IMG/VR virus record: IMGVR_UViG_3300030329_003188
Span: 1 to 37,234 of that record
Source of the DNA: a virus
Strand: one strand, 5' to 3'
Length of the DNA: 37,234 bases
Below are positions 7,967-24,457 of this stretch, in pieces. A program made the translations under genes and the position numbers. The notes beneath the pieces were generated by a model. It had not been told where the DNA came from and did not search any database. It saw nothing but the letters and a program-made list of their open reading frames with translations. Every line of letters starts with the position of its first letter. Positions within the stretch are counted from its first letter, which is position 1.

Positions 7967-8124
7967 TTGGTCCTTCGCTTTCTTTTTAGGATTCGCACTG
8001 CAGCGTCCGTCCAGGTTTCCCCGTCCCGTTGAGCGTCAGCGACGGTGTCATATACTGACACGGGGACGCGCAAACTAACGGCGCGCGTCTTCTCCCCGTG
8101 TTTCTGTGGTCGTCCCCGTGTCAC
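7963..8124 (-). CDS. Ribbon-helix-helix DNA-binding protein, 53 aa
   Basis: GTG at 8124 overlaps the upstream stop (GTGA). The product opens with a basic AT-hook-like MTRGRPQKHGEKTR, then a hydrophobic/basic strand AVSLRVPVSVYDTV and two helices with the turn DGETWTDAAVRILKRKRR. This is the normal order of RHH (CopG/Arc/ParG/omega-type) repressors, which bind tandem short repeats as dimers through the strand. The GTTAAC-containing hexamer arrays at the island's promoters (6030-6053, 8675-8691, 8946-8999) are natural candidate targets. Autoregulation is an inference. Confidence 0.75.
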   Translation of the reverse strand: MTRGRPQKHGEKTRAVSLRVPVSVYDTVADAQRDGETWTDAAVRILKRKRRTK

Positions 8125-8420
8125 GCTTTCTCCCCCCGTACGGCGTGGTCGATAACGTCGTCGATGTCGTTAGACTCGATGATAAGTTTAGGATTGACTG
8201 TTCCGTCGTCTTTGTACAGATAGAAACGAAAGCCGAACCCACCAAAGTCTCGAGCTTGCGGATCCGCGGCGTCCACAGATACCTTGTAGCGTCCCCATTG
8301 CCACGACGGGCAAGAGTCGTTCCCGTATGACACGTCCGTCCAGCCGTTATCCTGCAAGGCGTCTACCACGGCCTTCTCTGGCCAGAAGTCCTCGTTGAAT
8401 TGTTCCTTGTAGAGAGTCAT
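8121..8420 (-). CDS. Island protein, unknown, 99 aa
   Basis: ATG 8420 overlaps the previous stop (ATGA) and the stop overlaps the RHH start. The product MTLYKEQFNEDFWPEKAVVDALQDNGWTDVSYGNDSCPSW... combines a helix (PEKAVVDALQDNGW), strands rich in aromatics (WGRYKVSVDA, FGFRFYLYKDD) and an acidic C-terminal helix (ESNDIDDVIDHAVRG). It looks like a compact alpha/beta domain. I recognise no family. The composition matches the island. Confidence 0.7.
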   Translation of the reverse strand: MTLYKEQFNEDFWPEKAVVDALQDNGWTDVSYGNDSCPSWQWGRYKVSVDAADPQARDFGGFGFRFYLYKDDGTVNPKLIIESNDIDDVIDHAVRGEKA

Positions 8421-8590
8421 GACGCTTTCCTTTCGGTGTAATAGTGTCGGTAGTTTCCGTCCCGCTCGATCGACAGCGTCCGGGATCCCGTCGTGCTTAC
8501 AGTGTAGTAAGCGTCTTCGCTGGTTCGGTACGTCCTCAGTTTCTCGGCCATGTCGGTACGAGATATTGAGCTATGCTTGCGTGTCCTCAT
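8417..8590 (-). CDS. Island mini-protein, basic, 57 aa
   Basis: ATG 8590 shares a base with the stop of the 21-aa leader (TAATG), and the stop overlaps the next ATG (ATGA). The product MRTRKHSSISRTDMAEKLR...EDAYYTVSTTGSRTLSIERDGNYRHYYTERKAS has a basic start, one helix and three short strands, with net positive charge. A small nucleic-acid-binding protein is plausible. Supported by double coupling and a G-rich ribosome site. Confidence 0.65.
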   Translation of the reverse strand: MRTRKHSSISRTDMAEKLRTYRTSEDAYYTVSTTGSRTLSIERDGNYRHYYTERKAS

Positions 8591-8655
8591 TACGTCCCCC
8601 TACTGGTAAGTGTGTAACACGGGGCGCTTGCGCTTTGGTGACGATACGTCGTCAT
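8590..8655 (-). CDS. Candidate 21-aa leader peptide of leftward island operon
   Basis: ATG 8655 has a G-rich ribosome site (GGGGG, about 6 nt upstream) and the frame (MTTYRHQSASAPCYTLTSRGT) ends exactly at the next gene's ATG (TAATG). It is the first open frame after the promoter at 8701-8729. It could be a translational leader that opens the downstream ribosome site, or a real mini-protein. Confidence 0.35.
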   Translation of the reverse strand: MTTYRHQSASAPCYTLTSRGT

Positions 8656-8674
8656 GTTGTGCCCCCGTTGACAC

Positions 8675-8691
8675 GTTAACCGATTGTTAAC
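8675..8691. promoter_or_regulatory. Paired GTTAAC operator at leftward start site
   Basis: GTTAAC occurs at 8675-8680 and again at 8686-8691, 11 bp apart, i.e. on one face of the helix. They lie just downstream of the leftward -10 box, over the expected transcription start. They share the GTTAAC core with the border arrays, so the same regulator may bind all three. Confidence 0.5.
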
Positions 8692-8700
8692 GTATTACAG

Positions 8701-8729
8701 AATATAGGGGCGCCTCTGCATTAACGCAA
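8701..8729 (-). promoter_or_regulatory. Sigma70-type promoter of leftward island operon
   Basis: Read leftward, TTGCGT (8724-8729) is followed by a 17-base spacer and TATATT (8701-8706). The spacing is ideal and the first ATG is about 45 nt downstream. The GTTAAC pair covers the start region. Confidence 0.6.
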
Positions 8730-9128
8730 CACGTAAACAGGGGGAGCGTAATAATAAAGTTATCCCCGGCTTCCGGGTTCGCTTGCGCGTAGCGTCCCGT
8801 CTGTAGCCGTTAAGGGGTATAGAGAGAAGACACCGGGGATTGTCGATACCGAACCCCGTCCTCTATTGTGTGCCCCTATACGGACGTCTATCACCCCGCC
8901 TTCAAGCCTATCCCTCACTTGAGGCACAAGGGGGGGCGGTTGACCTTAACGTTAACGTCAACGTCAACTTTAAACTTAACGTTAACGTCAACGTTAATTG
9001 AAGGTGAAGCCGAACCAGGGGGACTACGGGGGCTATTGCACGTCAGTGTCTATATCATTACCACTTCCGCATGGTTGTGTAATCTGATGTGGGGTGTTAT
9101 TGTTTGGGATGGAGGAAATGATGAATCA
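8730..9128. other. Intergenic region with hexamer array, right border of island
   Basis: No convincing gene lies in these 399 bases. An open frame from 8868 exists only because the array happens to be open (it would read as alternating Leu/Thr/Ser). Nine contiguous, phase-locked hexamers fill 8946-8999: TTAACG, TTAACG, TCAACG, TCAACT, TTAAAC, TTAACG, TTAACG, TCAACG, TTAATT. TTGACC at 8940-8945 may be a tenth. The 17 bases 8979-8995 occur inverted at 6032-6048. I see no good promoter between here and the gene at 9129. Confidence 0.65.
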
Positions 9129-9365
9129 ATGTTGATTAGACAGAATGTGATGTTGGAGGAGGGCCATGTGGCTTGGTTGCGTGGTCAGGGTCCATCGATG
9201 AGTGAGGTTGTGCGGGAGTTGATTAACGTGGCGATGGACAAGCCTTCGTTCGACGATGATGTGCGTGAGCAGTTGGCTCAGTTGCGTCGGGAGGTGGATC
9301 ATTTGAAGGAGCGTTCAAGTGGCTTGACTGGTTTACTCGACAAGGGTGTGATGTTTGTTGGATGA
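9129..9365 (+). CDS. Ribbon-helix-helix-like protein with coiled-coil tail, 78 aa
   Basis: ATG 9129 follows GGAGGAAATG; upstream in-frame sequence runs into the hexamer array and is unlikely to be coded. Residues 1-38 (MLIRQNVMLEEGHVAWLRG, then PSMSEVVRELINVAM) fit the RHH pattern: a strand with alternating residues, helix 1, a G-containing turn and an S-EVVRE helix 2. The rest is a charged coiled coil (DDDVREQLAQLRREVDHLKER), as in regulators that oligomerise. It is the first gene of the rightward late region and sits right behind the hexamer array, so it is a second candidate binder of those sites. Confidence 0.65.
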   Translation: MLIRQNVMLEEGHVAWLRGQGPSMSEVVRELINVAMDKPSFDDDVREQLAQLRREVDHLKERSSGLTGLLDKGVMFVG

Positions 9366-9374
9366 GAGTTTTGT

Positions 9375-9608
9375 ATGTTTGCAGTGAAGGAGTGTCCGGC
9401 GGCGGTGGGTCAGTGTCATGCACTGACGGTGGACAGTTGTTTGCGTGAGTTTCTGCGGATGAAGGCATTGTCGCGCAAGACGGGGCATATGCTTTTGATG
9501 AAGCCTGGCAAATTTTCTGGAACGCGGATTACTTGCGGAATGGATTCCACATGGCTCAATGTTCACCATTCACGGGTTGAGGCTTGGATGGATCGCTATG
9601 GAACGTAG
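9375..9608 (+). CDS. Hypothetical protein, 77 aa
   Basis: The product MFAVKECPAAVGQCHALTVDSCLREFLRMKALSRKTGHM... has three Cys in the first 22 residues and a basic helical part, then TWLNVHHSRVEAWMDRYGT. No family is recognised. It starts 9 nt after the RHH gene stops and its stop overlaps the next start by 11 nt, which supports coding. T/G-rich codon use (TTG, GTG) resembles the neighbouring RHH gene and differs from both the island and the structural genes. Confidence 0.55.
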   Translation: MFAVKECPAAVGQCHALTVDSCLREFLRMKALSRKTGHMLLMKPGKFSGTRITCGMDSTWLNVHHSRVEAWMDRYGT

Positions 9609-9870
9609 TCAGGTGCTGGCTTTGGATGATGCCGCGCCTTATGATGATGTTGTGCGCGCGATGATTTTTGATTCGGGCATGGAGTCTACGCTGGTGGATA
9701 TTTCTTGTGGCACTTTGGATGACATCCACAGCCTCCGTACTTCTCTTAATTTGCTTCAGGATCGTCAGGCGCTCCATGAGAAGATGATGTCGCAGCGGCT
9801 TTCCAATCTTGAATCTGATATGCAAAACATCATTGCGACTCTGCAGCATATAGCGAGGAATCTTGGCTAA
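9598..9870 (+). CDS. Hypothetical coiled-coil protein, 90 aa
   Basis: ATG 9598 lies inside the last codons of the previous gene. The product MERSQVLALDDAAPYDDVVRAMIFDSGM... has an acidic N-terminal half (DISCGTLDDIHSLRTSLNLLQD) and a C-terminal helix with heptads (MMSQRLSNLESDMQNIIATLQHIARNL). It stops at 9870, overlapping the TTG start of the terminase small subunit-like gene. Small helical proteins are common just before terS, sometimes as packaging helpers; that role here is guesswork. Confidence 0.6.
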   Translation: MERSQVLALDDAAPYDDVVRAMIFDSGMESTLVDISCGTLDDIHSLRTSLNLLQDRQALHEKMMSQRLSNLESDMQNIIATLQHIARNLG

Positions 9871-10438
9871 GTCTCTGTCAGAGCAGCAAAAGCAGGCGAT
9901 TCACTATTTGGTGATGGATCGCTGGACCAAGGGAGATCTCAACGCTGCGGTTGCCGCCAACGTGGGTGTTTTGCCGGTAACCATTACGAAATGGCGTAAG
10001 TCTTCTCTGTTCAGAGAGGAATACGACCGTCAGGTCAAATTATATCGGGCAAACTTCGATGACGTACAGCTGGCAGACCGCAAGGAGCGGGTCAAGAAGC
10101 TGGAGGCTATCTACGAGAATCTGACGGATTCCCAGACTGCCATGAAGATCAAAATCCTTTCTGCCATCCGTGCCGAGGTTGGAGATGATAAAATCGAGGT
10201 AGAAGTTACACACCAGGGTGCAGTGGGCGTGAATCTACCGCCTCGAGCTTCAACTTACGAGGAATGGAACAAGCAGAATGCCATCATGGATAAAGATCGC
10301 ATCGTAGATGCAGAAGTTGTCGAGGAACCGCCTGTCGAACCCCCTGAAAAGGTGATTTCGGAACTTCCTGCCGGTTTTTCGACCACAAAAAATGCTATTT
10401 CTCGAGTAAATGACCAATTTCCAGTGGGAACCCCATGA
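9863..10438 (+). CDS. terS: Terminase small subunit-like protein
   Basis: TTG 9863 with a GAGGAA ribosome site overlaps the previous stop. Residues 1-55 form an HTH like that of many small terminases: LSEQQKQAIHYLVMD, then a second helix with NAAVAANVGVLPVTITKWRKSSLFREEYDRQ, matching the usual 'AA..vGvs..ti..W.k...F' pattern. Residues 60-110 are a helical oligomerisation-type region with KERVKKLEAIYENL, and the C-terminal 80 residues are acidic and Pro-rich (VVEEPPVEPPEK). It would recognise the packaging site and load TerL. It lies two genes upstream of terL, as expected; a pac site may be within or near this gene. Confidence 0.7.
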   Translation: MAKSLSEQQKQAIHYLVMDRWTKGDLNAAVAANVGVLPVTITKWRKSSLFREEYDRQVKLYRANFDDVQLADRKERVKKLEAIYENLTDSQTAMKIKILSAIRAEVGDDKIEVEVTHQGAVGVNLPPRASTYEEWNKQNAIMDKDRIVDAEVVEEPPVEPPEKVISELPAGFSTTKNAISRVNDQFPVGTP

Positions 10439-10683
10439 ATCAAGACGGTCCAAACATCCCGATTCTCGGCATTCCCAAGATGCGCCAGTATGAACTCCAA
10501 ATCCCCAAAAACTGCACGGCGGAACAACTTGGTATCTTTTTGCAGGGGTTTGTAAAATCTCTTGGTATGGGGTTCGCCTTTACCGATGACGATTTTTCCC
10601 AAATAAATCCAAAGATACGAGCCTGGTTTGTACCAGAAGAGGAACAGGATGGCACAGAAGAACCAAGCAGCCTTGTTGACTAA
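10435..10683 (+). CDS. Hypothetical protein, 82 aa
   Basis: ATG 10435 overlaps the previous stop (ATGA). The product MNQDGPNIPILGIPKMRQYELQIPKNCTAEQLGIFLQGFVKSLGMGFAFTDDDF... has a beta-strand (QYELQIPKN), an amphipathic helix (TAEQLGIFLQGFVKSLG), an acidic loop and a strand at KIRAWFVPEEE, ending with an acidic tail. It looks like a small globular alpha/beta protein. I recognise no family; the location between terS and terL suggests packaging or virion assembly. Its end overlaps the next gene by 35 nt. Confidence 0.65.
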   Translation: MNQDGPNIPILGIPKMRQYELQIPKNCTAEQLGIFLQGFVKSLGMGFAFTDDDFSQINPKIRAWFVPEEEQDGTEEPSSLVD

Positions 10684-11611
10684 CCTGGCGCGGATTGCGC
10701 CTTACGTCGCCATCGCTGCAACTTCGGGCCGCAAAGGACAGAACCAGTTACCGCCGGTAGATGATACCTTCACCAAGTCCTCTACGGGCCGCGCCCATCG
10801 GTTGCCCTCCACAGACTATCCGCAACGAACTCGTATGGATGTGGCCCTCGGCGGTGATCTGCCGCCAGAGCCGACCTTTGCTGAAATGCCTCTCACTCCA
10901 GCCGATATTTTGGGGCTGATGCGGATGAGCGCCAAGGGGGTGAGAACCCTCGCCAAGGAGCTTGAAACCGGAAGGGGTGGGTTGGCACAAATGGTTAAGC
11001 AATCACCAGACCTCCAAAAAGCCTCTCAGCAAGCGGCCAGAGTGCAATTTGGCGAAACGATCCCTTCGTTTAGAGCAATCTCTCCAACAGGGGCTTTGCG
11101 ACCCGATAAAGTGGCAAGCACAACAACGGACCCAAAAGTTGCCTTACAGATTGCCCGAGATTTTCCGGTGCTGATGGCGAAGGATGACTTCATTGCGCCC
11201 AAGCCAATTCTGCGACGATACGACGTTTCTCCTGACCGAGTGCAAGCCCATGTTCCTGCGCTAATTGACGCCGCACGGGCACAGCAACCTCACACGGTTA
11301 GAACAGGAAAGATTGATACTCGTCTTGGTGATCGGATGTCCATTGATGAGGTCTTTGAGCAAGCAAGGGCTGAAGACGAGCTGCTCTCAGATTTGCTCGG
11401 CCTCAACCCCCAAGAAGTTGCCTTTCAAACAGGAGCAGGCCAACCTCGGAGGGCGAGCAGGGCGCTCGATGTCGCAACAGGAAAATTTACAACCGGTGCG
11501 GACGAAGTTCAAAAAGCCAAAAAGTCATCGTCATTTTTTGAAGATGAGGGCCTTGCCGCGCAAGAATTTGATGCTTTCGCGCAAGAAATACTCAAGCTTT
11601 TGGCTCCTTAA
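10649..11611 (+). CDS. Possible ADP-ribosyltransferase-fold protein, 320 aa
   Basis: ATG 10649 has a GAGGAACAGG ribosome site. Residues 1-130 are low-complexity and helical, including a hydrophobic LARIAPYVAIAAT. Residues 138-265 follow the order of R-S-E type ADP-ribosyltransferases: IPSFRAIS (Arg142), VASTTTDPKVALQIA (Ser157-Thr-Thr, then DP..A), a middle part ending in strands and helices (ILRRYDVSPDRVQAH, DEVFEQ), then NPQEVAFQTG (Glu256 before a hydrophobic strand and Gly). The residue two before the Glu is Pro, not Gln or Glu, so activity may be altered or absent. It could equally be a structural protein with a degenerate ART fold. The C-terminus is helical and acidic. It sits between terS and terL. 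Confidence 0.45.
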   Translation: MAQKNQAALLTNLARIAPYVAIAATSGRKGQNQLPPVDDTFTKSSTGRAHRLPSTDYPQRTRMDVALGGDLPPEPTFAEMPLTPADILGLMRMSAKGVRTLAKELETGRGGLAQMVKQSPDLQKASQQAARVQFGETIPSFRAISPTGALRPDKVASTTTDPKVALQIARDFPVLMAKDDFIAPKPILRRYDVSPDRVQAHVPALIDAARAQQPHTVRTGKIDTRLGDRMSIDEVFEQARAEDELLSDLLGLNPQEVAFQTGAGQPRRASRALDVATGKFTTGADEVQKAKKSSSFFEDEGLAAQEFDAFAQEILKLLAP

Positions 11612-11627
11612 ACCTGGATAAATAGCC

Positions 11628-11662
11628 GCCGATGTGAGGTCCAGGCTTGAACCCCCATCGGC
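11628..11662. other. Hairpin between the ART-like gene and terL
   Basis: GCCGATG (11628-11634) pairs with CATCGGC (11656-11662) over a 21-base loop. There is no T run, so termination is unlikely. It may tune expression of the short frame and terL downstream. Confidence 0.4.
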
Positions 11663-11681
11663 AACAAAAGAACAGATTAAG

Positions 11682-11741
11682 ATGGCAGAGAAAAAAGCAG
11701 CCTACCGACGCATAGAAGAAATTTTGAGTAATCTTGCCTGA
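11682..11741 (+). CDS. Candidate 19-aa leader overlapping terL start
   Basis: ATG 11682 opens MAEKKAAYRRIEEILSNLA, which stops at 11739-11741 just after the TTG start of terL at 11734. The peptide is helical and reads like a genuine protein start. It may be a coupling leader for terL, which has a poor ribosome site of its own, or the real N-terminus of TerL reached by a +1 frameshift or hidden by an assembly indel. Confidence 0.35.
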   Translation: MAEKKAAYRRIEEILSNLA

Positions 11742-13110
11742 CGAAGTCTGGAAACCCCAACTCGGACCCCAGGAAAAGGCGATCCGGGCGGCGTTCATCG
11801 AAGAGTTGTTTTTCGGTGGAGCCAGAGGAGGAGGCAAGACCTCTTTCCTTATGGGAGACTTTGCAGCCGATGTGCAAGAAAACGGCTCCGCATGGAGAGG
11901 GATCGTCTTCCGGCGAACCTATCCCGAACTCGATGAAGTCGTCGAAGAAGGCAAGCGGGTACTCTACAAAGCCTTCCCCGGAACTGAATACAAAGTAGGC
12001 GTCCACGAATTTCGCATACCACATGCAACCGGTGATGTGGTGCTTCGCCTGCGACACATGGAGAACGTCGGGGATGCAGACCATTACATGGGGCACCAGT
12101 ATACCTGGATCTCGTTCGACGAGTTGCCCAACTGGCCCTCCCTCGAAGCCTACAAGAAACTTAAAGCCTGCCTCCGCTCCACCGCGGGTGTGCCGAACAT
12201 GCGGATTCGGTCTACAGGAAACCCCGGTGGAGTGGGGCACCAGGCTGTCAAGGAATACTTCATCGATCCTGCCCCCGAGGGCGAAGTCGTCATCCAGGAC
12301 GATCAGTCCATTAACCCTCGGATGTTTATCAAATCCCTTGTCACAGACAACCGAATCCTGCTCGCTGCCGACCCCGGATACATCGACCGACTCAAAGGCG
12401 TCGGAGATGAGCATCTGGTTAAAGCGTGGCTCGAAGGAGATTGGGATTCCTTTGTCGGACAGTATTTCACGTCATGGAGCAACGAGTGCGTCATCCCCTC
12501 GTTTCCCGTCCCCGACTCATGGCCCCTGTTCGGGGGGCTTGACTACGGCGAAGCTTCGCCTACCTCTTTTGGACTCTACACTATAGACTTTGACGGCAAC
12601 ATCTATCGTATCGGTGAGTACTATCAAGCAGGCGCTGCTGCATCGACCCATGCGTACGAGATCGACAAGATGATCCAGTCGAATCCTTTTACGGGTGGGC
12701 GACCGCCTGCTCAGATTTATGCAGATCCATCGATGTGGGCCAAGCGGAGGCTCACGGAAGCGGTGACGCACTCGCCCTACGATATTTTCTCCGAGCAGGG
12801 ATTGCATCTCACCAAGGGGAACAACGACCGCATCACAGGATGGAGAGTCATCAACGATGCGCTGACCAAGAAGAAGTTTTATGTGTTTGGAGGATGGAAC
12901 GACAACCTTACTCGAACACTACCCGCTCTACCAAGATCGACATCGAACCCAGAAGATGTGGACACGCATTCGGACGACCATGCAGCCGATGAACTCCGAT
13001 ACGCGATGATGCACATCTATCGACCATCACTGCCCAAACATGACGCCGTGCGGAACCCGTTCTACGGAGGCAACGTGTTGGATAGTCTGCCAGCAAGGAA
13101 AACCGCATGA
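11734..13110 (+). CDS. terL: Terminase large subunit (TerL)
   Basis: The 458-aa product carries the full packaging-motor signature. WKPQLGPQEKA is the usual entry. FFGGARGGGKTSFL (26-39) is Walker A. YTWISFDELPNW (123-134) is Walker B with Asp129 and catalytic Glu130, and RSTGNPGGVGH (159-169) is the coupling motif. The C-terminal RNase H-like nuclease shows FGGLDYGE (Asp270), IYADPSMW (Asp331) and a DTHSDDHAADELRYAM motif near residues 415-435. It pumps DNA into the prohead and cuts the concatemer. The start is TTG 11734 with a weak ribosome site. The end overlaps the portal gene (ATGA). Confidence 0.95.
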   Translation: MPDEVWKPQLGPQEKAIRAAFIEELFFGGARGGGKTSFLMGDFAADVQENGSAWRGIVFRRTYPELDEVVEEGKRVLYKAFPGTEYKVGVHEFRIPHATGDVVLRLRHMENVGDADHYMGHQYTWISFDELPNWPSLEAYKKLKACLRSTAGVPNMRIRSTGNPGGVGHQAVKEYFIDPAPEGEVVIQDDQSINPRMFIKSLVTDNRILLAADPGYIDRLKGVGDEHLVKAWLEGDWDSFVGQYFTSWSNECVIPSFPVPDSWPLFGGLDYGEASPTSFGLYTIDFDGNIYRIGEYYQAGAAASTHAYEIDKMIQSNPFTGGRPPAQIYADPSMWAKRRLTEAVTHSPYDIFSEQGLHLTKGNNDRITGWRVINDALTKKKFYVFGGWNDNLTRTLPALPRSTSNPEDVDTHSDDHAADELRYAMMHIYRPSLPKHDAVRNPFYGGNVLDSLPARKTA

Positions 13111-15170
13111 CGCCCAAGCAACTGCAGTTTTGGACCAAGACCTTTGAAACGACCGAGAAGTATATGGTCAAGCACCACGCAATGTGGCGTAGACTCATCA
13201 AACTGTATGAACTGGACTTTGATGATCTCGGCATCGATGATGGCGACCAGAAAAAAATCTCACGGTTCTATCCGCTTACGCGCCAGATCATCGCCTCAGT
13301 GGTGTTTCAGAACCCCCGCGTTTTCATGCGCGTCGAAGACAACAATAGTCAATTCCAGACAGAGATTCTTGAGCGCGTTGTGAACGATGGCTTGGGATTG
13401 ATTCACGCCAAGCGCCACGTCCAGCAGATGACCTTCGACTCCCTCTATTGCTACAAGGGCATCCTCAAGTGCGGCGTTAATCCTATCGGGGACAATGATA
13501 TTGTCGCCCCCTACGTAGCGAATGACGTGATGCAGAACGGCATGTTCTATGTCGCCCGAGTGAGTCCATTCAACTTCTACACTGATGTAATGACTCCGCC
13601 CCACGACCCCGGCCAAGCGCGCTTTGATTACGAGAAAATGCTGGTGCCGAACGAGTTCGTGCAGAAGGACAAGCGGTTTAAGCACAAGAACGAGATCAAG
13701 CCGCTGACGACGGAAGATCTCGACGAGATGCTTTCTGACTGGGAAGACTCCAATGGAGATGAGGGCGACGAGCAGCAGCAGATGATCGAGAGAGCCAAGC
13801 AGGAAGGTGGCTACGTCCAGTTGCGCGAGGTCCACGACCGCCTGCACAAAAAGAGGATCACCTTCGCCCAGGGCGTTGAGCAACCCATCGAAGAGATCCC
13901 GCATCCCTTCCTTGCTGGTGAGTCACAAATCGCCATCGACCCCATTGATGGAGAGGAAAGAGTGACCGGTCAGTTCCAACCCACCGGCGGGTATCTGGTA
14001 TCGGGCGGGACGCCCTATATCAAACTGACGCTCGACATGACTCACGAAGGCCCTTACGGTGTGCCGATGATGGCCTACGCCGAGGACACACAGAAAGGGA
14101 TCGTGGAGTCACTCTCCCGTCGATCCGCAGGAACAAAGAGAAACGCCCGTGTCATTCTCGGCCAGAAGGCAGAGCAGACAGAGAACCCCACTGTGGGCGA
14201 CGACATCGAGCAGGGCAAGGACGGCAAGATCGTTTGGGTGAATGACGTGAACAACGCATTCGCAGAAATGTCTCAAGCCACTCCGCCTGCAGATCAGTTG
14301 GGCCTCGAGTCCGACCTTCGCGCCTACGAGGAACAAATCCTCGCCGTCAGCCAGATGGCTATGGGAGGAGGAAGCAGGGTTACGGCCACGCAAGCGGCTC
14401 TCACTGCATCCTTTGGACAGCTAAACCGAGACTGGATGCAGAACCAGGTTGCACAGGTCTTCGAGGACATCTCCTACAACATGGTTCGTATCATGGGGGA
14501 CAAGCGGTACGAGCCAAAGTCCTTCCTCGTCAATACAGCACAAGGTGAAGATGACCCTGTGTTCCAAGTGGTTCGGTCTGATATGCTCCAGGCAAGATTC
14601 CGGGTCCACGTAGAGGCAGGCTCAATGAAGCCGATGTTCGAGGAGCTTGAAAGGGAGGACGCTCTTGCGCTGTTCGGGCACATGATACAGCTGCCTGAGA
14701 TCCCTCGCATCGAGTCGATCAAACATCTACTCAGAGCTTTCCGTGTTCCCAACCAGGACAAGCTGATCGGCGGTGCCGCAAACCTCGACGCCAAGCGCAC
14801 TGCGGAATACGAGAACATGCTCTTTCTGTCGGGACAGAATGTTCAGGTTCACCCACAGGAGAACCACAGGGCGCATATGGAGGTTCATCGGCAGGTGCCA
14901 CAGACACCGCAGTGGCAGCAGTTGGTTCAGCAGAATCCTCTACTGGCACAGCAAATTGCTCCCGCCCTCGATCAGCACATGCAGCAGCACCAACAGGCCC
15001 TGCAGCAGATGGCAGGCGGCGGGGCGGCTCCTGCTCGAGTAGGCAACCTGTCAGACGCGGGTGGCCTGGATACGGTTCGGAAGCAGTTGGGCAAGGTAGA
15101 CTCTGCTGTCAGAAGTTCGGCCCAGGAGACATCGCAAGCAGTTGCCGCTATTGACAGGAATCAGAATTGA
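13107..15170 (+). CDS. Portal protein
   Basis: The 687-aa product directly follows terL with an ATGA overlap, the standard place for a portal. The N-terminus (YMVKHHAMWRRLIKLYELD, then FYPLTRQIIASVVFQNPRVFM) has the helical plus 'NP.vf' pattern typical of podovirus and P22-like portals. The middle contains FNFYTDVMTPPHDPGQARF and PYGVPMMAYAEDTQKGI. The C-terminal part includes a Gln-rich tail (QHMQQHQQALQQMAGGG) like the barrel or disordered tail of other portals. It forms the dodecameric ring at the packaging vertex and docks TerL and later the connector. Confidence 0.85.
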   Translation: MTPKQLQFWTKTFETTEKYMVKHHAMWRRLIKLYELDFDDLGIDDGDQKKISRFYPLTRQIIASVVFQNPRVFMRVEDNNSQFQTEILERVVNDGLGLIHAKRHVQQMTFDSLYCYKGILKCGVNPIGDNDIVAPYVANDVMQNGMFYVARVSPFNFYTDVMTPPHDPGQARFDYEKMLVPNEFVQKDKRFKHKNEIKPLTTEDLDEMLSDWEDSNGDEGDEQQQMIERAKQEGGYVQLREVHDRLHKKRITFAQGVEQPIEEIPHPFLAGESQIAIDPIDGEERVTGQFQPTGGYLVSGGTPYIKLTLDMTHEGPYGVPMMAYAEDTQKGIVESLSRRSAGTKRNARVILGQKAEQTENPTVGDDIEQGKDGKIVWVNDVNNAFAEMSQATPPADQLGLESDLRAYEEQILAVSQMAMGGGSRVTATQAALTASFGQLNRDWMQNQVAQVFEDISYNMVRIMGDKRYEPKSFLVNTAQGEDDPVFQVVRSDMLQARFRVHVEAGSMKPMFEELEREDALALFGHMIQLPEIPRIESIKHLLRAFRVPNQDKLIGGAANLDAKRTAEYENMLFLSGQNVQVHPQENHRAHMEVHRQVPQTPQWQQLVQQNPLLAQQIAPALDQHMQQHQQALQQMAGGGAAPARVGNLSDAGGLDTVRKQLGKVDSAVRSSAQETSQAVAAIDRNQN

Positions 15171-15218
15171 AATGCTCGCATCTGGACAACGCCCGTAACC
15201 TGAAAGGAACTTTTCTGG

Positions 15219-20120: not shown

Positions 20121-21710
20121 ATGGCTATTGACGGCGAAGACATTCAATTAGGCCCCTGGACCGGCGGAGTGTGGTATTCCCGCCCTGAAGAGGATGTGGC
20201 TGAAGACGAGATTTCCGCCATGGAAAATGTTCGTATTCAGCCTGCAGGAGCCTGCGAGAAGCGTCCGGGGACTGTGTCCTATAAGTCCGCTGCCGCCTAC
20301 ACCTCCAATCCTACCTGTACAATGATCGCAGAGTTTACTGTGCCGCCCTCTACGACCCACGTCGTGGCGGTATTTGGCACAGCGATCTACCAATACTCGG
20401 CAGCATCCTCCCCCGTATGGCAGGCTATTACAGGAAGCCTGACGATTACTGCGGCAGACGATAATACGTTTGAATGGGCAGTGGACGAGGCGACCGGAAC
20501 TTTGCTGGCAACCAACGGCGTAAACCCCCCTTGGAAGTGGACGGGGTCAAGCACCGCCGCCGCGGCTGACGTGGACTCGAGGTTTACCACTGCGGAGCAT
20601 GTCGCCTTTTGGGACAACCGCGTTTGGTGGGGCAATGTTGATACGTCATATGATCGGCTATGGTATTCCGACATCGCAGACATTGACACTGTCGGAGCAA
20701 CGTCGTTCTACCAGTTCGGCCACCCCATCACGGCATTGGTCCCGACCCGCAATGCGCTGACCGTGCATACAACGGGTGGCATCTATACGCTGGTGCCGAC
20801 AGGCAATGCCGACATCCCCTATCAGCAGCAGCAGAAGACCGGAAGAGAGAACTCCGGTGGTGTAAGAGCAGGGCGCGCGGCTTTGAATGGCCGTGCAATA
20901 GTTGTGCTTCCGGGCGACAGGCAGCTTTTCCTGCGCGCAGACGGGATTTACCTGTGGGACGGGGAAGACGAGGTCGAGAAAAAGTCTTTTCAGCTTGACC
21001 TGGGCTACTGGCCCGAGTTGGTCACCAGCCGCCTGACGCAAGCGTTTGCCGTCTATTATCCCAAGGAAGCCGAGGCGTGGTTTTGGGTTCCTTATGGGAC
21101 TGGCCAGACGGCAATGAATCACATCATCGTCTATTCGGATCGGCACGATTGTTGGTTTGGCCCGATGACCGGATCGGGTTCCTACTTCTACCGCAACTGT
21201 GCGGCCTCTATCGACGGAAAACCCCATGCGGGGACTCTTAATTCGTCGGGGTCGATTGGCGGTAAAGTCATGGACCATGAGCCTAACGACACCTACAAGG
21301 ACGACGACGCATCTGCCAGCGGAATCGCTATCCGTGCCTACTTCCGCACAGGTGCCCCGGCTCCTGAAGGTTCTGGAGTGCGGCTCCGCTGGCTCTATAC
21401 TCGGACCTACTACGACGCCACAGGGAACTACAATATCACGGTCAACCAGGAGTCTTCTGGCGTCACCGGAACAACAAAGACTTTGAATGTGTCTGGCGGT
21501 GGATTCGATTTGGACGAGGACAATCTTGACGAGGCCGAACTTGGCACCGTAAGAATGCTGGCCTACGACACAGATCTCAGTGAGTATGACCCGCACTCGA
21601 GCATCAAATTCACAAACAACACTATCAATGAGTTTTTCCGTATTCGTAGAACACATCCGACGTACAAGAACATTGGCCGCAAGCGCCGTATCGGCGCAGG
21701 AGTTTCATAA
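20121..21710 (+). CDS. Tail nozzle/stabilisation-type protein, 529 aa
   Basis: The gene begins immediately after the connector stop. The product is beta-rich throughout, with repeated strand motifs (HVVAVFGTAIYQYSA, TTGGIYTLVPTG, DRQLFLRADGIYLWDGED) resembling a beta-propeller, and opens with LGPWTGGVWYSRPEEDVAEDEISAMENVRIQPAGACEKRPG. This 'G..W..G...s.p...a.d.is..eNv.i...G..ekRpG' entry is common in tail tubular protein B, P22 gp10-like and other nozzle proteins of short-tailed phages. It would form the tube or nozzle end of the tail. The end overlaps the next ATG. Confidence 0.65.
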   Translation: MAIDGEDIQLGPWTGGVWYSRPEEDVAEDEISAMENVRIQPAGACEKRPGTVSYKSAAAYTSNPTCTMIAEFTVPPSTTHVVAVFGTAIYQYSAASSPVWQAITGSLTITAADDNTFEWAVDEATGTLLATNGVNPPWKWTGSSTAAAADVDSRFTTAEHVAFWDNRVWWGNVDTSYDRLWYSDIADIDTVGATSFYQFGHPITALVPTRNALTVHTTGGIYTLVPTGNADIPYQQQQKTGRENSGGVRAGRAALNGRAIVVLPGDRQLFLRADGIYLWDGEDEVEKKSFQLDLGYWPELVTSRLTQAFAVYYPKEAEAWFWVPYGTGQTAMNHIIVYSDRHDCWFGPMTGSGSYFYRNCAASIDGKPHAGTLNSSGSIGGKVMDHEPNDTYKDDDASASGIAIRAYFRTGAPAPEGSGVRLRWLYTRTYYDATGNYNITVNQESSGVTGTTKTLNVSGGGFDLDEDNLDEAELGTVRMLAYDTDLSEYDPHSSIKFTNNTINEFFRIRRTHPTYKNIGRKRRIGAGVS

Positions 21711-24457
21711 TGGCAGAAGGTTCATTCAGCGTCTTCAAAAACCCAGACCTTGTCAACATTACTGGCAAGGGCTTCGACAAGAAACGTCTTCGCCGCGGTA
21801 ACCAGGGGTTTGATCCCGGCATTCAGATCGGAGATCTGGACACGCAAGGCAACCGCAGCATCTTTGCGGACGGGACTCTTGTCGGCGCGACTTCGGGCCG
21901 AAATGTCATGGGGCACTCGCAGGGGTTCGGCAGCTTCATGCCCACGACAACGTCCTCCTCTGTCGGCGCAAATAATGCAGTAGCAGGCGGCGGGGCGGCT
22001 CCTCCCGGCGGAGGCGGTTCGGGCCAAGGGTCTGTCAACCCCATAGCCGACGTAGAGCCTCTTCCGCCCTTAGATCCCCTTTCGACCCACGTCTCCGACG
22101 CTGACCCGCCGCGTGGCTCGAATCAATTTGAACTTGACGAAGATCTGTTTCCCGAGAAGCCTATTGAGGTCACCACTGAATCTGATCCGTACGTCAACCC
22201 CCAAGAATTTCGGACAGACCGAGGGGGTGGGGCCTTCGATACTGCTGACCAAAGGCTTGCGGCATTAAACGACCTTCGGTCCCTGCCTCCGATGCTGCAG
22301 GCACTCCAACAGATCGGGCTGGACCCAAGCTCTCCGTTGGCGCAGATGCTCAACAGCATCCAAACCGGGGGCACGACAAGTGAACGGTTTCGTAATTGGG
22401 ATACGCCGGATCGGTTCTCTGCATTCCTTGACAGGCTCGAGGGAACCGGGGGCATTCTTGACGATATCTCTGCGTTTGAAACGCCCTCATCGATAGACAA
22501 AATCAGAAATTCTCTCTTAGAATCTCAAGGCTTTTTAAGGGATATCGCAGGCGGCTCATTTGGCGGTGGCCCCGGAGATTTCTTTCCTCGTGGGGGGCAG
22601 TTGGCTGATGCCTTGGAGCAAACGGGGCTATTGCGCGACAAAGTTACGAGTTTGGCAGAAACCGATATACCCGACCTGCGGACGGAAATTGGACAGTTGC
22701 CTACCGCGTTTAACATTAACCCCATCAGTGAGGCGATTGGTGGTGCGCGGACGGATATCTTGGCCTTGGCCAACTTGCTGGGCGTGGACGACATTCTACC
22801 ACTGATCGAACGCCAGAATCTACTGGATGCCTTGCCTGGAGCAGGTTTGGTTGCAAGTGACATCTTGCCGAGGGTTCGCAAAGCGGATCTGACCGATGCG
22901 CTGGGGAGCCAGCGACTTACTCCTGACCAGTTTTTGGGACAGGTTGGCCAGAAGGATCTGGCCAAGGCGCTCGGAAGCCAGCGACTCTCCCCCGATCAGT
23001 TTCTGGGGCCGGTTTTGCCCCAGCACTTAGCCAGTGCGCTGGGAGATCAACGGATTACTCCCGAGCAGATCCTGCCGCGACTAAGGCCAGAAGACTTAGC
23101 CAGCGCCTTGGGAAGTCAGCAGCTTACTCCTGACCAGTTCTTAGGGCGGGTCGGAGAAGAGGATCTGGTACAAGCCTTGGGTAGCACACGACTGAGGCCC
23201 GACCGGTTCTTAGGACAGGTCGGAGAGGAAGATCTGGCCCGAGCTTTGGGCAGTACGCGCCTCGGTGCGGACCGGTTTTTAGGACAGGTTGAAGAAGAGG
23301 ATCTGTTACAAGCCTTGGGCAGTACGAGACTCACTCCCGATCAGTTTTTGCCGGACATCAACGTAAGAGATTTGGGTTTACCAGATGTTGGTGTAAGAGA
23401 TTTGGGTTTACCGGATGTTGGCGTGAGTGATTTGGGCCTGCCAGATGTTGGCATTGGCGATCTGGGTCTGCCCAGCCTTGGTGTAAGCGATTTGGGCCTG
23501 CCTGACATCGGCATTGGCGATTTGGGCTTTCCAAGCATCACCGTAAACGATCTGCTCGACAGGGTATCGGGTGATGTAAATATCACTGGAGAGCCGTTTG
23601 ACGATTCTGGAATACGTAGTATGATCGGCGACCTCCGCACAGGTCTTTCCGGGGACATTCGCAGTCAACTCGCAGACCTTGGCCTGCCTCAATTCTTTGG
23701 AGACGTAGGCGCAGGCGGCGTTGGCGGACAACTGGCTGATCTTCGCACGGCAGTGGAAGGTATAACGCCAGAATATGGTGGGGTCGGCGGCGGTGAAGGT
23801 GGCGAGGGCGGCGAAATGGACTTGAGTGAGATTCTAAAGCGCCTTGACGCCCTTCAGGGCCAAATAGGTGGTTTGACGCCTACCGTACCTGGTGCGGGTG
23901 GAATCTTCGGTGATGTGCAGGACGCGATTCGCGCAGACCTTGCAGGACCGCAGACAGCTGCAGAACTCAGAGAAGACCCGCTTACAAAATCTATCCTGGA
24001 AGATCTGCAAGCGAAGTTCGCGCGCCGAGCGGAGGCTGACCGAGAGCAACTGAGTCGCTTTGGTGTCATTCGAGGCGGTGACACTATCGACTTGGCCAAC
24101 CTCCGGGCAGACGACCAGGCTCGCGCAGAACTTTCCGCACTTGCAGATGCGGCAGAAAGAGCAAGGCTCTTGAGAACTGCAGGCATTACCGCAGGCACAG
24201 ACCTCGGTCGAACCCTTTCCGACAGAGAAATCGCTCGAGCCGAACTGACAGGCGTACTTGGCGACCAACAGACGCTTGACTCACGCCAAGCTGACATGGA
24301 CGTGATTGCTTCGATCATTGCGGCGCTCGATCCTGCCGTAGAATTTGATACGGGAGATGAGTTGCAGAAAGGGTTTGGAGCGGCAATGCTCGAACTGCTG
24401 AACCTGCCGCCCTGGATAGTGGAAAACCTCAGAACGAAACTTGATCTTCCGAGATAG
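21710..24457 (+). CDS. Repeat-rich virion protein, 915 aa
   Basis: ATG 21710 overlaps the nozzle stop. Residues 1-170 are Gly/Pro-rich and disordered. Residues 384-544 are seven tandem 23-residue repeats (consensus begins QFLGQVGEEDL and continues with an ALGSTRLTPD-type half), with a diverged eighth copy just before. Residues 550-609 are six tandem decapeptides (VGVRDLGLPD type), with a decayed seventh to 619. The remaining 300 residues include a Gly-rich linker and a helical C-terminus (ARRAEADREQLSRFGVIRGGDTIDLANLRADDQARAELSALADAAERA). Length, position and composition suggest an internal/ejection or tail-tip protein. I know no family with these repeats. No lytic-transglycosylase motif is seen. 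Confidence 0.7.
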   Translation: MAEGSFSVFKNPDLVNITGKGFDKKRLRRGNQGFDPGIQIGDLDTQGNRSIFADGTLVGATSGRNVMGHSQGFGSFMPTTTSSSVGANNAVAGGGAAPPGGGGSGQGSVNPIADVEPLPPLDPLSTHVSDADPPRGSNQFELDEDLFPEKPIEVTTESDPYVNPQEFRTDRGGGAFDTADQRLAALNDLRSLPPMLQALQQIGLDPSSPLAQMLNSIQTGGTTSERFRNWDTPDRFSAFLDRLEGTGGILDDISAFETPSSIDKIRNSLLESQGFLRDIAGGSFGGGPGDFFPRGGQLADALEQTGLLRDKVTSLAETDIPDLRTEIGQLPTAFNINPISEAIGGARTDILALANLLGVDDILPLIERQNLLDALPGAGLVASDILPRVRKADLTDALGSQRLTPDQFLGQVGQKDLAKALGSQRLSPDQFLGPVLPQHLASALGDQRITPEQILPRLRPEDLASALGSQQLTPDQFLGRVGEEDLVQALGSTRLRPDRFLGQVGEEDLARALGSTRLGADRFLGQVEEEDLLQALGSTRLTPDQFLPDINVRDLGLPDVGVRDLGLPDVGVSDLGLPDVGIGDLGLPSLGVSDLGLPDIGIGDLGFPSITVNDLLDRVSGDVNITGEPFDDSGIRSMIGDLRTGLSGDIRSQLADLGLPQFFGDVGAGGVGGQLADLRTAVEGITPEYGGVGGGEGGEGGEMDLSEILKRLDALQGQIGGLTPTVPGAGGIFGDVQDAIRADLAGPQTAAELREDPLTKSILEDLQAKFARRAEADREQLSRFGVIRGGDTIDLANLRADDQARAELSALADAAERARLLRTAGITAGTDLGRTLSDREIARAELTGVLGDQQTLDSRQADMDVIASIIAALDPAVEFDTGDELQKGFGAAMLELLNLPPWIVENLRTKLDLPR
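22859..23341 (+). repeat. Seven tandem 69-bp coding repeats
   Basis: The DNA encodes seven in-frame 23-residue units. Later copies are closest to each other (for example GAGGAAGATCTGGCCCGAGC and its neighbours), which suggests recent expansion at the 3' side. A diverged unit precedes the block. Confidence 0.9.
23357..23536 (+). repeat. Six tandem 30-bp coding repeats
   Basis: GATTTGGGTTTACCAGATGT-type units recur every 30 bases and encode DLGLPDVGV-type decapeptides. Alternate copies carry GVSD or GIGD, so the block may have grown by doubling of a 60-bp pair. It abuts the 69-bp repeat block. Confidence 0.9.

What the first reader, a model, noticed from the sequence alone, without database searches (positions are those of the whole stretch)
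11058..11440. ADP-ribosyltransferase-like R-S-E pattern between terS and terL
Arg142 (SFRAIS), Ser157 (ASTTTDPKVAL) and Glu256 (PQEVAFQTG) occur in the order and approximate spacing of R-S-E ADP-ribosyltransferases. Some phages package such enzymes to modify host proteins (T4 Alt, ModA, ModB are known). The position in the packaging cluster suggests a virion-associated protein. The missing Gln/Glu two residues before the Glu is a caution.
Basis: partly seen in the sequence, partly recalled or inferred. Interest (0 to 1): 0.6.

Follow-up and report, generated by a model that had tools for sequence, protein, structure and literature searches.

The report
Swappable effector gene beside phage terminase
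Between its two DNA-packaging genes this uncultured phage carries a gene with a fixed front half and a tail domain that related phages swap for unrelated ones; here the tail looks like, but is not proven to be, an enzyme that tags proteins with ADP-ribose.

Summary
The protein is real: window 10649-11611 (+), 320 aa, between terS and terL. A better ART reading is FR142 - S157-T-T-D-P-x-V-A - E242-D-E244. Support comes from a MuF-phage C-terminal domain (L081) with the same order. Against: no Pfam, PHROGs, NCBIfam or PDB-sequence match, and two structure models too poor to use (pLDDT 41 and 39).

The stronger result is the locus. Relatives keep the leader and the sequence just after the stop codon and exchange the C-terminal domain. 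Phages 99% identical to the window in terL carry unrelated C-termini (ParB-like in L002; unknown in L006/L008). A lineage only ~65% identical in flanking DNA (L001) carries the window's domain with 1 mismatch in 761 bp. A sister clade does the same upstream of terS. I read this as a polymorphic, probably virion-delivered effector gene, a MuF-free relative in kind of MuF toxins. Delivery and enzymology are inferred.

The parts
9863..10438 (+). terS, terminase small subunit
   Evidence: PHROG terminase small subunit E 1.8e-7; aligned with 7 relatives
10435..10683 (+). 82-aa ORF that overlaps the end of terS and the start of the effector gene
   Evidence: no PHROGs match better than E 0.12
10649..11611 (+). 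the gene of the finding: leader + exchangeable C-terminal domain, 320 aa
   Evidence: no Pfam, PHROGs, NCBIfam or PADLOC match
10649..10738 (+). leader part 1 (residues 1-30), lineage-specific; kept in L002, and its end (10686-10738) 100% identical in L006
10747..10898 (+). leader part 2 / anchor (residues ~33-83), 'PPVDDTFTKSSTGRAHRLPSTDYPQRTRMDVALGGDLPPEPTF', shared by window, L001, L002 and L003 although flanks of L001/L003 are only ~65% identical DNA; followed by the motif AEMPLTPADI
10899..11608 (+). exchangeable C-terminal domain (residues 84-320), putative R-S-E ADP-ribosyltransferase
   Evidence: replaced by unrelated sequence in L002, L003, L006/L008; last 761 bp of the gene have 1 mismatch with L001
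11072..11074 (+). Arg142, putative first ART residue (FRAI)
   Evidence: aligned with YRGI of L081 and YRAA of L094
11117..11143 (+). S157-T-T-T-D-P-K-V-A, putative STS strand
   Evidence: same TTDPxVA motif in L081 and inside the PF18760 ART-PolyVal match of L052
11372..11380 (+). E242-D-E244, putative ExE; E244 the likely catalytic Glu
   Evidence: aligned with EQSEW of L081 and QEDEF of L094
11414..11416 (+).
   Evidence: residue checked; not the Glu aligned with those of L081/L094
11603..11671 (+). 3' border: conserved non-coding stretch around and after the stop codon, with stops in all three frames (TAA 11609, TAA 11619, TAG 11623) and inverted repeats
   Evidence: 94-98% identical in L001, L002 and L003; stops; repeats
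11734..13110 (+). terL, terminase large subunit
   Evidence: PHROG terminase large subunit E 3e-34
13107..15170 (+). putative portal protein (by position and size; no convincing library match)

Best explanation
The gene encodes a two-part, probably virion-delivered effector. A leader of about 83 residues (a lineage-specific start, then a shared anchor that runs into the EMPLTPxD motif) is kept, while the C-terminal domain behind it is exchanged between phages by recombination in the anchor and in a conserved border at the stop codon (exchange shown by sequence; recombination mechanism inferred). In this phage the C-terminal domain is most likely a divergent R-S-E ADP-ribosyltransferase with R142, S157-T-T and E242-x-E244 (inferred, about 0.6). 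The leader would attach the protein to the head or packaging machinery made from the neighbouring genes, the protein would enter the host with the DNA, and the enzyme would ADP-ribosylate a host or defence target early in infection (inferred). No immunity gene travels with the domain, which argues against a classical toxin-immunity pair.
For: Exchange: window v L002: flanks 94.6% (8416-10899) and 99.1% (from 11609) identical, middle replaced by a domain with a PHROG ParB-like match, E 1.4e-6. Window v L001: flanks 64-66%, but 10747-11671 98.3% and the last 761 bp of the gene 1 mismatch. L001 v L003: 98% identical on both sides of an unrelated C-terminus. L006 and L008, 99.6% identical to each other, carry a fourth C-terminus with terL onward 99.2-99.3% identical to the window. 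Sister clade: leader 'MAGTLQSLGRIGQDPQMANRIVQALIEST' in all 5 loci found (L096 from the L028 contig, L029, L097 from the L031 contig, L027, L009) with 4 different C-termini; L028 v L027 and L028 v L031 lose identity after the leader and regain it 5 bases after L028's stop codon. The L031 C-terminal domain recurs in L014 behind another leader, E 8e-13. ART: motif order; L081, a MuF protein (PF04233 E 6e-16, TIGR01641 E 1.5e-16), matches the domain, 7 of 2000 shuffles reaching its score with the selected motif held fixed (11 of 2000 with soft gaps); TTDPEVA lies inside a PF18760 ART-PolyVal match, E 6.1e-16, in L052. Literature: phage ARTs near terminase/portal genes or fused to MuF (PMC9503650, passages).
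Against: No profile library recognises the domain and no PDB sequence does. Both structure models are unusable; the beta-alpha pattern of the first appears only when the relatives are in the alignment and vanishes without them. L094 is not a significant match (1208 of 2000 shuffles reach its score; 66 of 2000 with soft gaps), and its S falls on W/T. L081 was found by a motif taken from the window. Nothing shows that the protein is in the virion. The gene is missing from the interval in several relatives (L013/L037, L019, L039-L044), so it is accessory.
Confidence: 0.55

Rival explanations
1. The exchangeable C-terminal domain is not an ADP-ribosyltransferase but some other accessory domain, and the ART-like residues are coincidence.
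For: No library or PDB-sequence match; structure models of no value; the loose R-S-E pattern is in nearly every shuffle; L094 match not significant.
Against: Ordered FR...STTTDPxVA...VSPDRVxAH...[EQ]xE shared with the MuF-fused L081 domain; the TTDPEVA motif sits in a Pfam ART-PolyVal match.
Confidence: 0.35
2. The protein is a cell-expressed late or early phage enzyme (host takeover, anti-defence or superinfection exclusion) that never enters the virion; its place beside terminase is only an insertion site that tolerates accessory genes.
For: The terS-terL interval is variable in other relatives too: L045, L046 and L047 share terS and terL at 84-95% DNA identity but have two unrelated inserts or none between them; no library virion domain in the protein.
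Against: The leader is kept while the C-terminus changes, and a version of the sister-clade leader is also found on a second, larger gene in L028 and L031, as expected of a targeting tag; the exchanged domain types (ART-like, ParB-like) are those that PMC5512222 lists in proteins predicted to be injected (passages).
Confidence: 0.3
3. A polymorphic toxin with a cognate immunity protein used in competition between lysogens, as proposed for MuF toxins.
For: Constant N-terminus and variable C-terminus; ART domains are common among MuF toxins (PMC5576092, passages).
Against: The exchanged segment ends at the stop codon in both clades, so no downstream gene travels with it; no MuF domain; terL of the group gave no match in the bacterial genome scan, so no prophage was seen (that scan needs exact short peptides).
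Confidence: 0.08
4. Part of the mosaic is an assembly chimera between co-occurring phages joined at the conserved anchor and border.
For: L001 is a 6220-base metagenome contig whose domain is nearly identical to the window's; anchor runs of 49-79 identical bases are shared across lineages.
Against: The same arrangement was assembled twice from different datasets (L006 and L008; L028 and L029). In L001 the right-hand switch from window-like to L003-like bases lies inside a run of only 15 shared bases, too short for usual assembly words, unless L001's own lineage already had the window base.
Confidence: 0.07

Closest known systems
MuF polymorphic toxins of temperate phages (PMC5576092, BMC Biol 2017)
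   Same: Phage packaging-module gene with a constant N-terminal part and exchangeable C-terminal effector domains, ARTs among them; near terminase/portal genes.
   Different: No MuF domain; a short unrecognised leader instead; exchange ends at the stop codon with no small downstream gene exchanged; no prophage seen.
Phage R-S-E ARTs near terminase/portal genes and T4 Alt/ModA/ModB (PMC9503650; T4 facts as told there and in PMC5512222)
   Same: Putative R, S-T-T and ExE residues; location in the packaging cluster.
   Different: No detectable match to any ART profile; fold unproven; leader and exchange of the domain not described in the passages read.
Polyvalent proteins of phages and conjugative elements, with ART and ParB/Srx domains (PMC5512222)
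   Same: Same kinds of domains (ART-like, ParB-like) on proteins predicted to be delivered with the DNA.
   Different: One effector domain per protein here (238-381 aa in L002, window and L003), exchanged between phages rather than strung together.

Membership tests
R-S-E ADP-ribosyltransferases | Arg on the first core strand | tested here: inconclusive
   R142 aligns with R of L081 and L094 (trimming tuned); strand not established
R-S-E ADP-ribosyltransferases | S-x-S/T motif on the second core strand | tested here: inconclusive
   S157-T158-T159 present; S kept in L081, not clearly in L094
R-S-E ADP-ribosyltransferases | [EQ]-x-E with the catalytic Glu | tested here: inconclusive
R-S-E ADP-ribosyltransferases | ART fold | tested here: inconclusive
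   models of pLDDT 40.6 and 38.7; searches with the first gave nothing usable
R-S-E ADP-ribosyltransferases | match to a curated ART profile | tested here: not met
   0 families at E<=1 in Pfam, PHROGs and PADLOC and at E<=10 in NCBIfam for the whole protein; 0 in Pfam and PHROGs at E<=10 for the C-terminal part
R-S-E ADP-ribosyltransferases | NAD+-dependent ADP-ribosyl transfer | not testable with these tools
   needs biochemistry
MuF polymorphic toxins | MuF domain in the N-terminal region | tested here: not met
   no Pfam family at E<=1; the same library finds MuF in L081 at 6e-16
MuF polymorphic toxins | constant N-terminus with exchangeable C-terminal effector domains | tested here: met
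MuF polymorphic toxins | small downstream immunity-like ORF | tested here: not met
   exchanged segment ends at the stop codon; downstream DNA is shared by phages with different domains
MuF polymorphic toxins | carried by temperate phages | tested here: inconclusive
   no match of terL in genome contigs, a scan limited to exact short peptides; lifestyle genes not surveyed
Virion-packaged (injected) effectors | presence in the virion | not testable with these tools
   needs virion proteomics

The most novel reading that the evidence does not exclude
A MuF-independent polymorphic effector locus of an uncultured phage group: a short leader packages whichever C-terminal effector is recombined behind it (two kinds of ART-like domain, a ParB-like nuclease, unknown helical domains), with a conserved border at the stop codon, carrying stops in three frames, serving as the exchange site, so that phages only about 65% alike trade intact effectors.
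Probability: 0.4. Interest if true: 0.7.

Novelty: new variant of a known kind. Interest (0 to 1): 0.52.

Why it matters
If true, injected phage effectors need no MuF or giant polyvalent protein: a short leader would do, and its exchange locus would be a ready source of new host-takeover and anti-defence domains. The leader could be tested directly as a virion-packaging tag, and the terS-terL interval searched for unknown effectors in other phages. Phage ARTs beside packaging genes are already known; the new part is the domain exchange behind a new leader.

Tried and rejected
Library look-ups of the whole protein and of the C-terminal part gave nothing. tblastn of it in phages found no match at E<=1 or, C-terminal part, E<=10; in plasmids 3 matches with E 3-6, taken as chance. 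The genome-contig scans with the domain and with terL found nothing. AlphaFold models: pLDDT 40.6 with two distant relatives in the alignment, 38.7 without; Foldseek and VIA-align 2 on the first listed no convincing match (a KptA chain at Z 2.7, rank 11, is not evidence, and families not listed are not excluded). Profile A8 against PDB sequences gave 2 matches, E 0.59 and 3, taken as chance; L094 and L081 alone gave 3 and 1, E 0.5-1.2, likewise. Rfam: one chance match; ARAGORN: no tRNA in the window, so the 3' border is not a tRNA found by that program. A scan for the border's core found only the three contigs already known. Plain MAFFT alignments of the domain with L081 and L094 put motifs out of register; I then searched over trimmings for one in which the motifs align and used it, so that alignment is not independent evidence. 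Of the 36 stretches with TTDP[KE]VAxxxA (one is the contig of L001) I read as ART-like, by eye, the contexts of L052 and its copies L057, L066, L068, L069 and L084, of L055, of L062/L063/L075, of L077 and of L081; the rest look like chance or are unclear. Of 11 stretches with the V-S/T-like-P-D-R-V-x-A-H pattern only L081 and L094, besides L051 (the contig of L001), had such a context. L003's C-terminus as ART-PolyVal-like rests on BLASTP E 0.014 to L052; that of L028 is by eye only, with no Pfam match. Three-frame stops at the border may be chance.

Papers: PMC9503650, PMC5512222, PMC5576092, PMC11654794: passages only. Searches in which I saw no report of a domain-exchange locus between terS and terL, listings only apart from those passages; subscription papers and preprints are not covered.

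Full report
What is there. The finding falls in an open frame at 10649-11611 (+), 320 aa from ATG 10649. It follows terS (9863-10438) and an 82-aa ORF and precedes terL (11734-13110); both terminase calls rest on PHROGs matches. The 337-aa ORF at 16543-17556 matches a PHROG major head protein, E 1.4e-40. The window is a 37,234-base virus record. Its terL is under 60% identical to everything it matched in the phage collection (649 records; best row listed 35.5%), and 8000-15200 has no DNA match there.

Is the R-S-E pattern more than chance? The loose pattern is not: 19794 of 20000 shuffles have it. A stricter ART pattern that ends in E242-D-E244-L-L rather than E256 occurs in 34 of 20000, and in 3 of 20000 if a following [VIL]A is required, but I wrote both after reading the sequence, and a first form with one more condition was not matched at all.

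Relatives of the C-terminal domain. Only L001 is close. To reach further I scanned IMG/VR for two short DNA-level motifs of the domain. TTDP[KE]VAxxxA gave 36 stretches. Among them, by eye, L081 reads LYRGI...SWTTDPEVAKKFA...VSPDRVLAH...EQSEWMVL, which matches the window along its length; with the selected motif held fixed, 7 of 2000 shuffles of L081 reach its score. L081 belongs to a MuF head protein. In L052 the same TTDPEVA lies in a Pfam ART-PolyVal match, E 6.1e-16. VxPDRVxAH gave 11 stretches; L094 (YRAA...TPDRVLAHITDRQEDEFIVD) looks alike but its similarity is not significant (1208 of 2000 shuffles). In the alignment used for modelling, whose trimming I tuned, R142, T159, V164, VxPDRVxAH and E244 are shared by all four rows. 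So E244 with E242 two residues before it is the likelier catalytic Glu.

What fails. No profile library or PDB sequence recognises the domain. Both structure models are of very low confidence. I therefore put the ART reading at about 0.6 and do not file the protein as a member.

The locus. Aligned with its relatives the gene is a mosaic. Against L002, DNA identity is 94.6% up to 10899 and 99.1% from 11609, and in between L002 has an unrelated sequence whose end matches ParB-like PHROGs (E 1.4e-6). Against L001, flanking genes are 64-66% identical but 10747-11671 is 98.3% identical, and the last 761 bp of the gene, through the stop codon, have one mismatch. L001 and L003 are strains of one phage (98% on both sides) with different C-termini. 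Against L003, only the anchor (10747-10890, 89.8%) and the border (11603-11671, 94.2%) are well conserved, around a C-terminus that reads YHGT...GPGIYLTDN, perhaps a second ART type (BLASTP E 0.014 to L052). L006 and L008 share everything from 11715 on (99.2-99.3%), and L006 also the end of leader part 1 (10686-10738, 100%); they have a fourth C-terminus and neither anchor nor border.

The same in a sister clade. With terS as query, 26 loci were found. In L027, L028/L029, L031 and L009 a gene upstream of terS starts with a shared leader. A scan with that leader found 5 loci, all of this set, with four C-termini; identity between L028 and L027 or L031 stops after the leader and returns 5 bases after L028's stop codon. 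L031's C-terminal domain recurs in L014 (E 8e-13). In a third set, L045 and L046 have unrelated inserts between terS and terL, and L047 has none. Other relatives have only a small lysine-rich ORF there, or that and one other small ORF (L013/L037, L019, L039-L044). A short motif, E-M/V-P-L-T/S-P-x-D, ends the leader in window, L002, L003 and L009, with looser forms in L014 and L021 (L001 shares the window's).

How it probably works. The constant leader, the place in the packaging cluster, and exchange of one enzyme-like domain for another all suggest a tag that brings varied effectors into the virion. ARTs and ParB-like domains are hubs of proteins predicted to be delivered with phage DNA (PMC5512222), and about 44% of phage ARTs in one survey sit in contexts suggestive of head packaging (PMC9503650). 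The exchange is shown. Homologous recombination at anchor and border is inferred from where identity begins and ends. Packaging, injection and ADP-ribosylation are inferred.

Compared with what is known. In kind this is nearest to MuF toxins (PMC5576092), but there is no MuF domain, and no small gene is exchanged with the domain. It is a new variant of a known kind. Chimeric assembly is the chief technical worry for L001; it is weak for the pairs L006/L008 and L028/L029, each assembled twice from different datasets.

Noticed in passing
window 11609-11662: The border after the stop codon has stop codons in all three frames (TAA 11609, TAA 11619, TAG 11623) and two interleaved inverted repeats (CCTGGA/TCCAGG and GCCGATG/CATCGGC) that could form a pseudoknot; one pair is broken in L002 and one in L003.
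   Followed up: partly
L045, L046, L047 (terS to terL): Three related phages with terS and terL 84-95% identical have a 159-aa ORF, a different 176-aa ORF, or nothing between the two genes: a general insertion site.
   Followed up: partly
L028 3082-4956 and L031 1585-3897: A second, larger gene upstream of terS carries a version of the same leader (GTLSSLGRVGQDSEMSNRV) and repeats of ELGQDLE; function unknown.
   Followed up: no
window 11681-11739: Short reading frame MAEKKAAYRRIEEILSNLA before terL; by eye a remnant of the lysine-rich small ORF found before terL in L001 and others. Its start repeats the start of the effector gene (10648-10673).
   Followed up: no
window 21710-24457: 915-aa ORF of a putative virion protein with a run of repeats of the type ALGSxRLTPDQFLGxVxxxDL; no PHROGs match.
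   Followed up: no
L062, L063, L075: Very long reading frames (2,453-3,900 aa) with an ART-like segment (LYRGD...GLTTDPKVAQKFA), by eye followed by a ParB-like segment: candidate polyvalent proteins.
   Followed up: no
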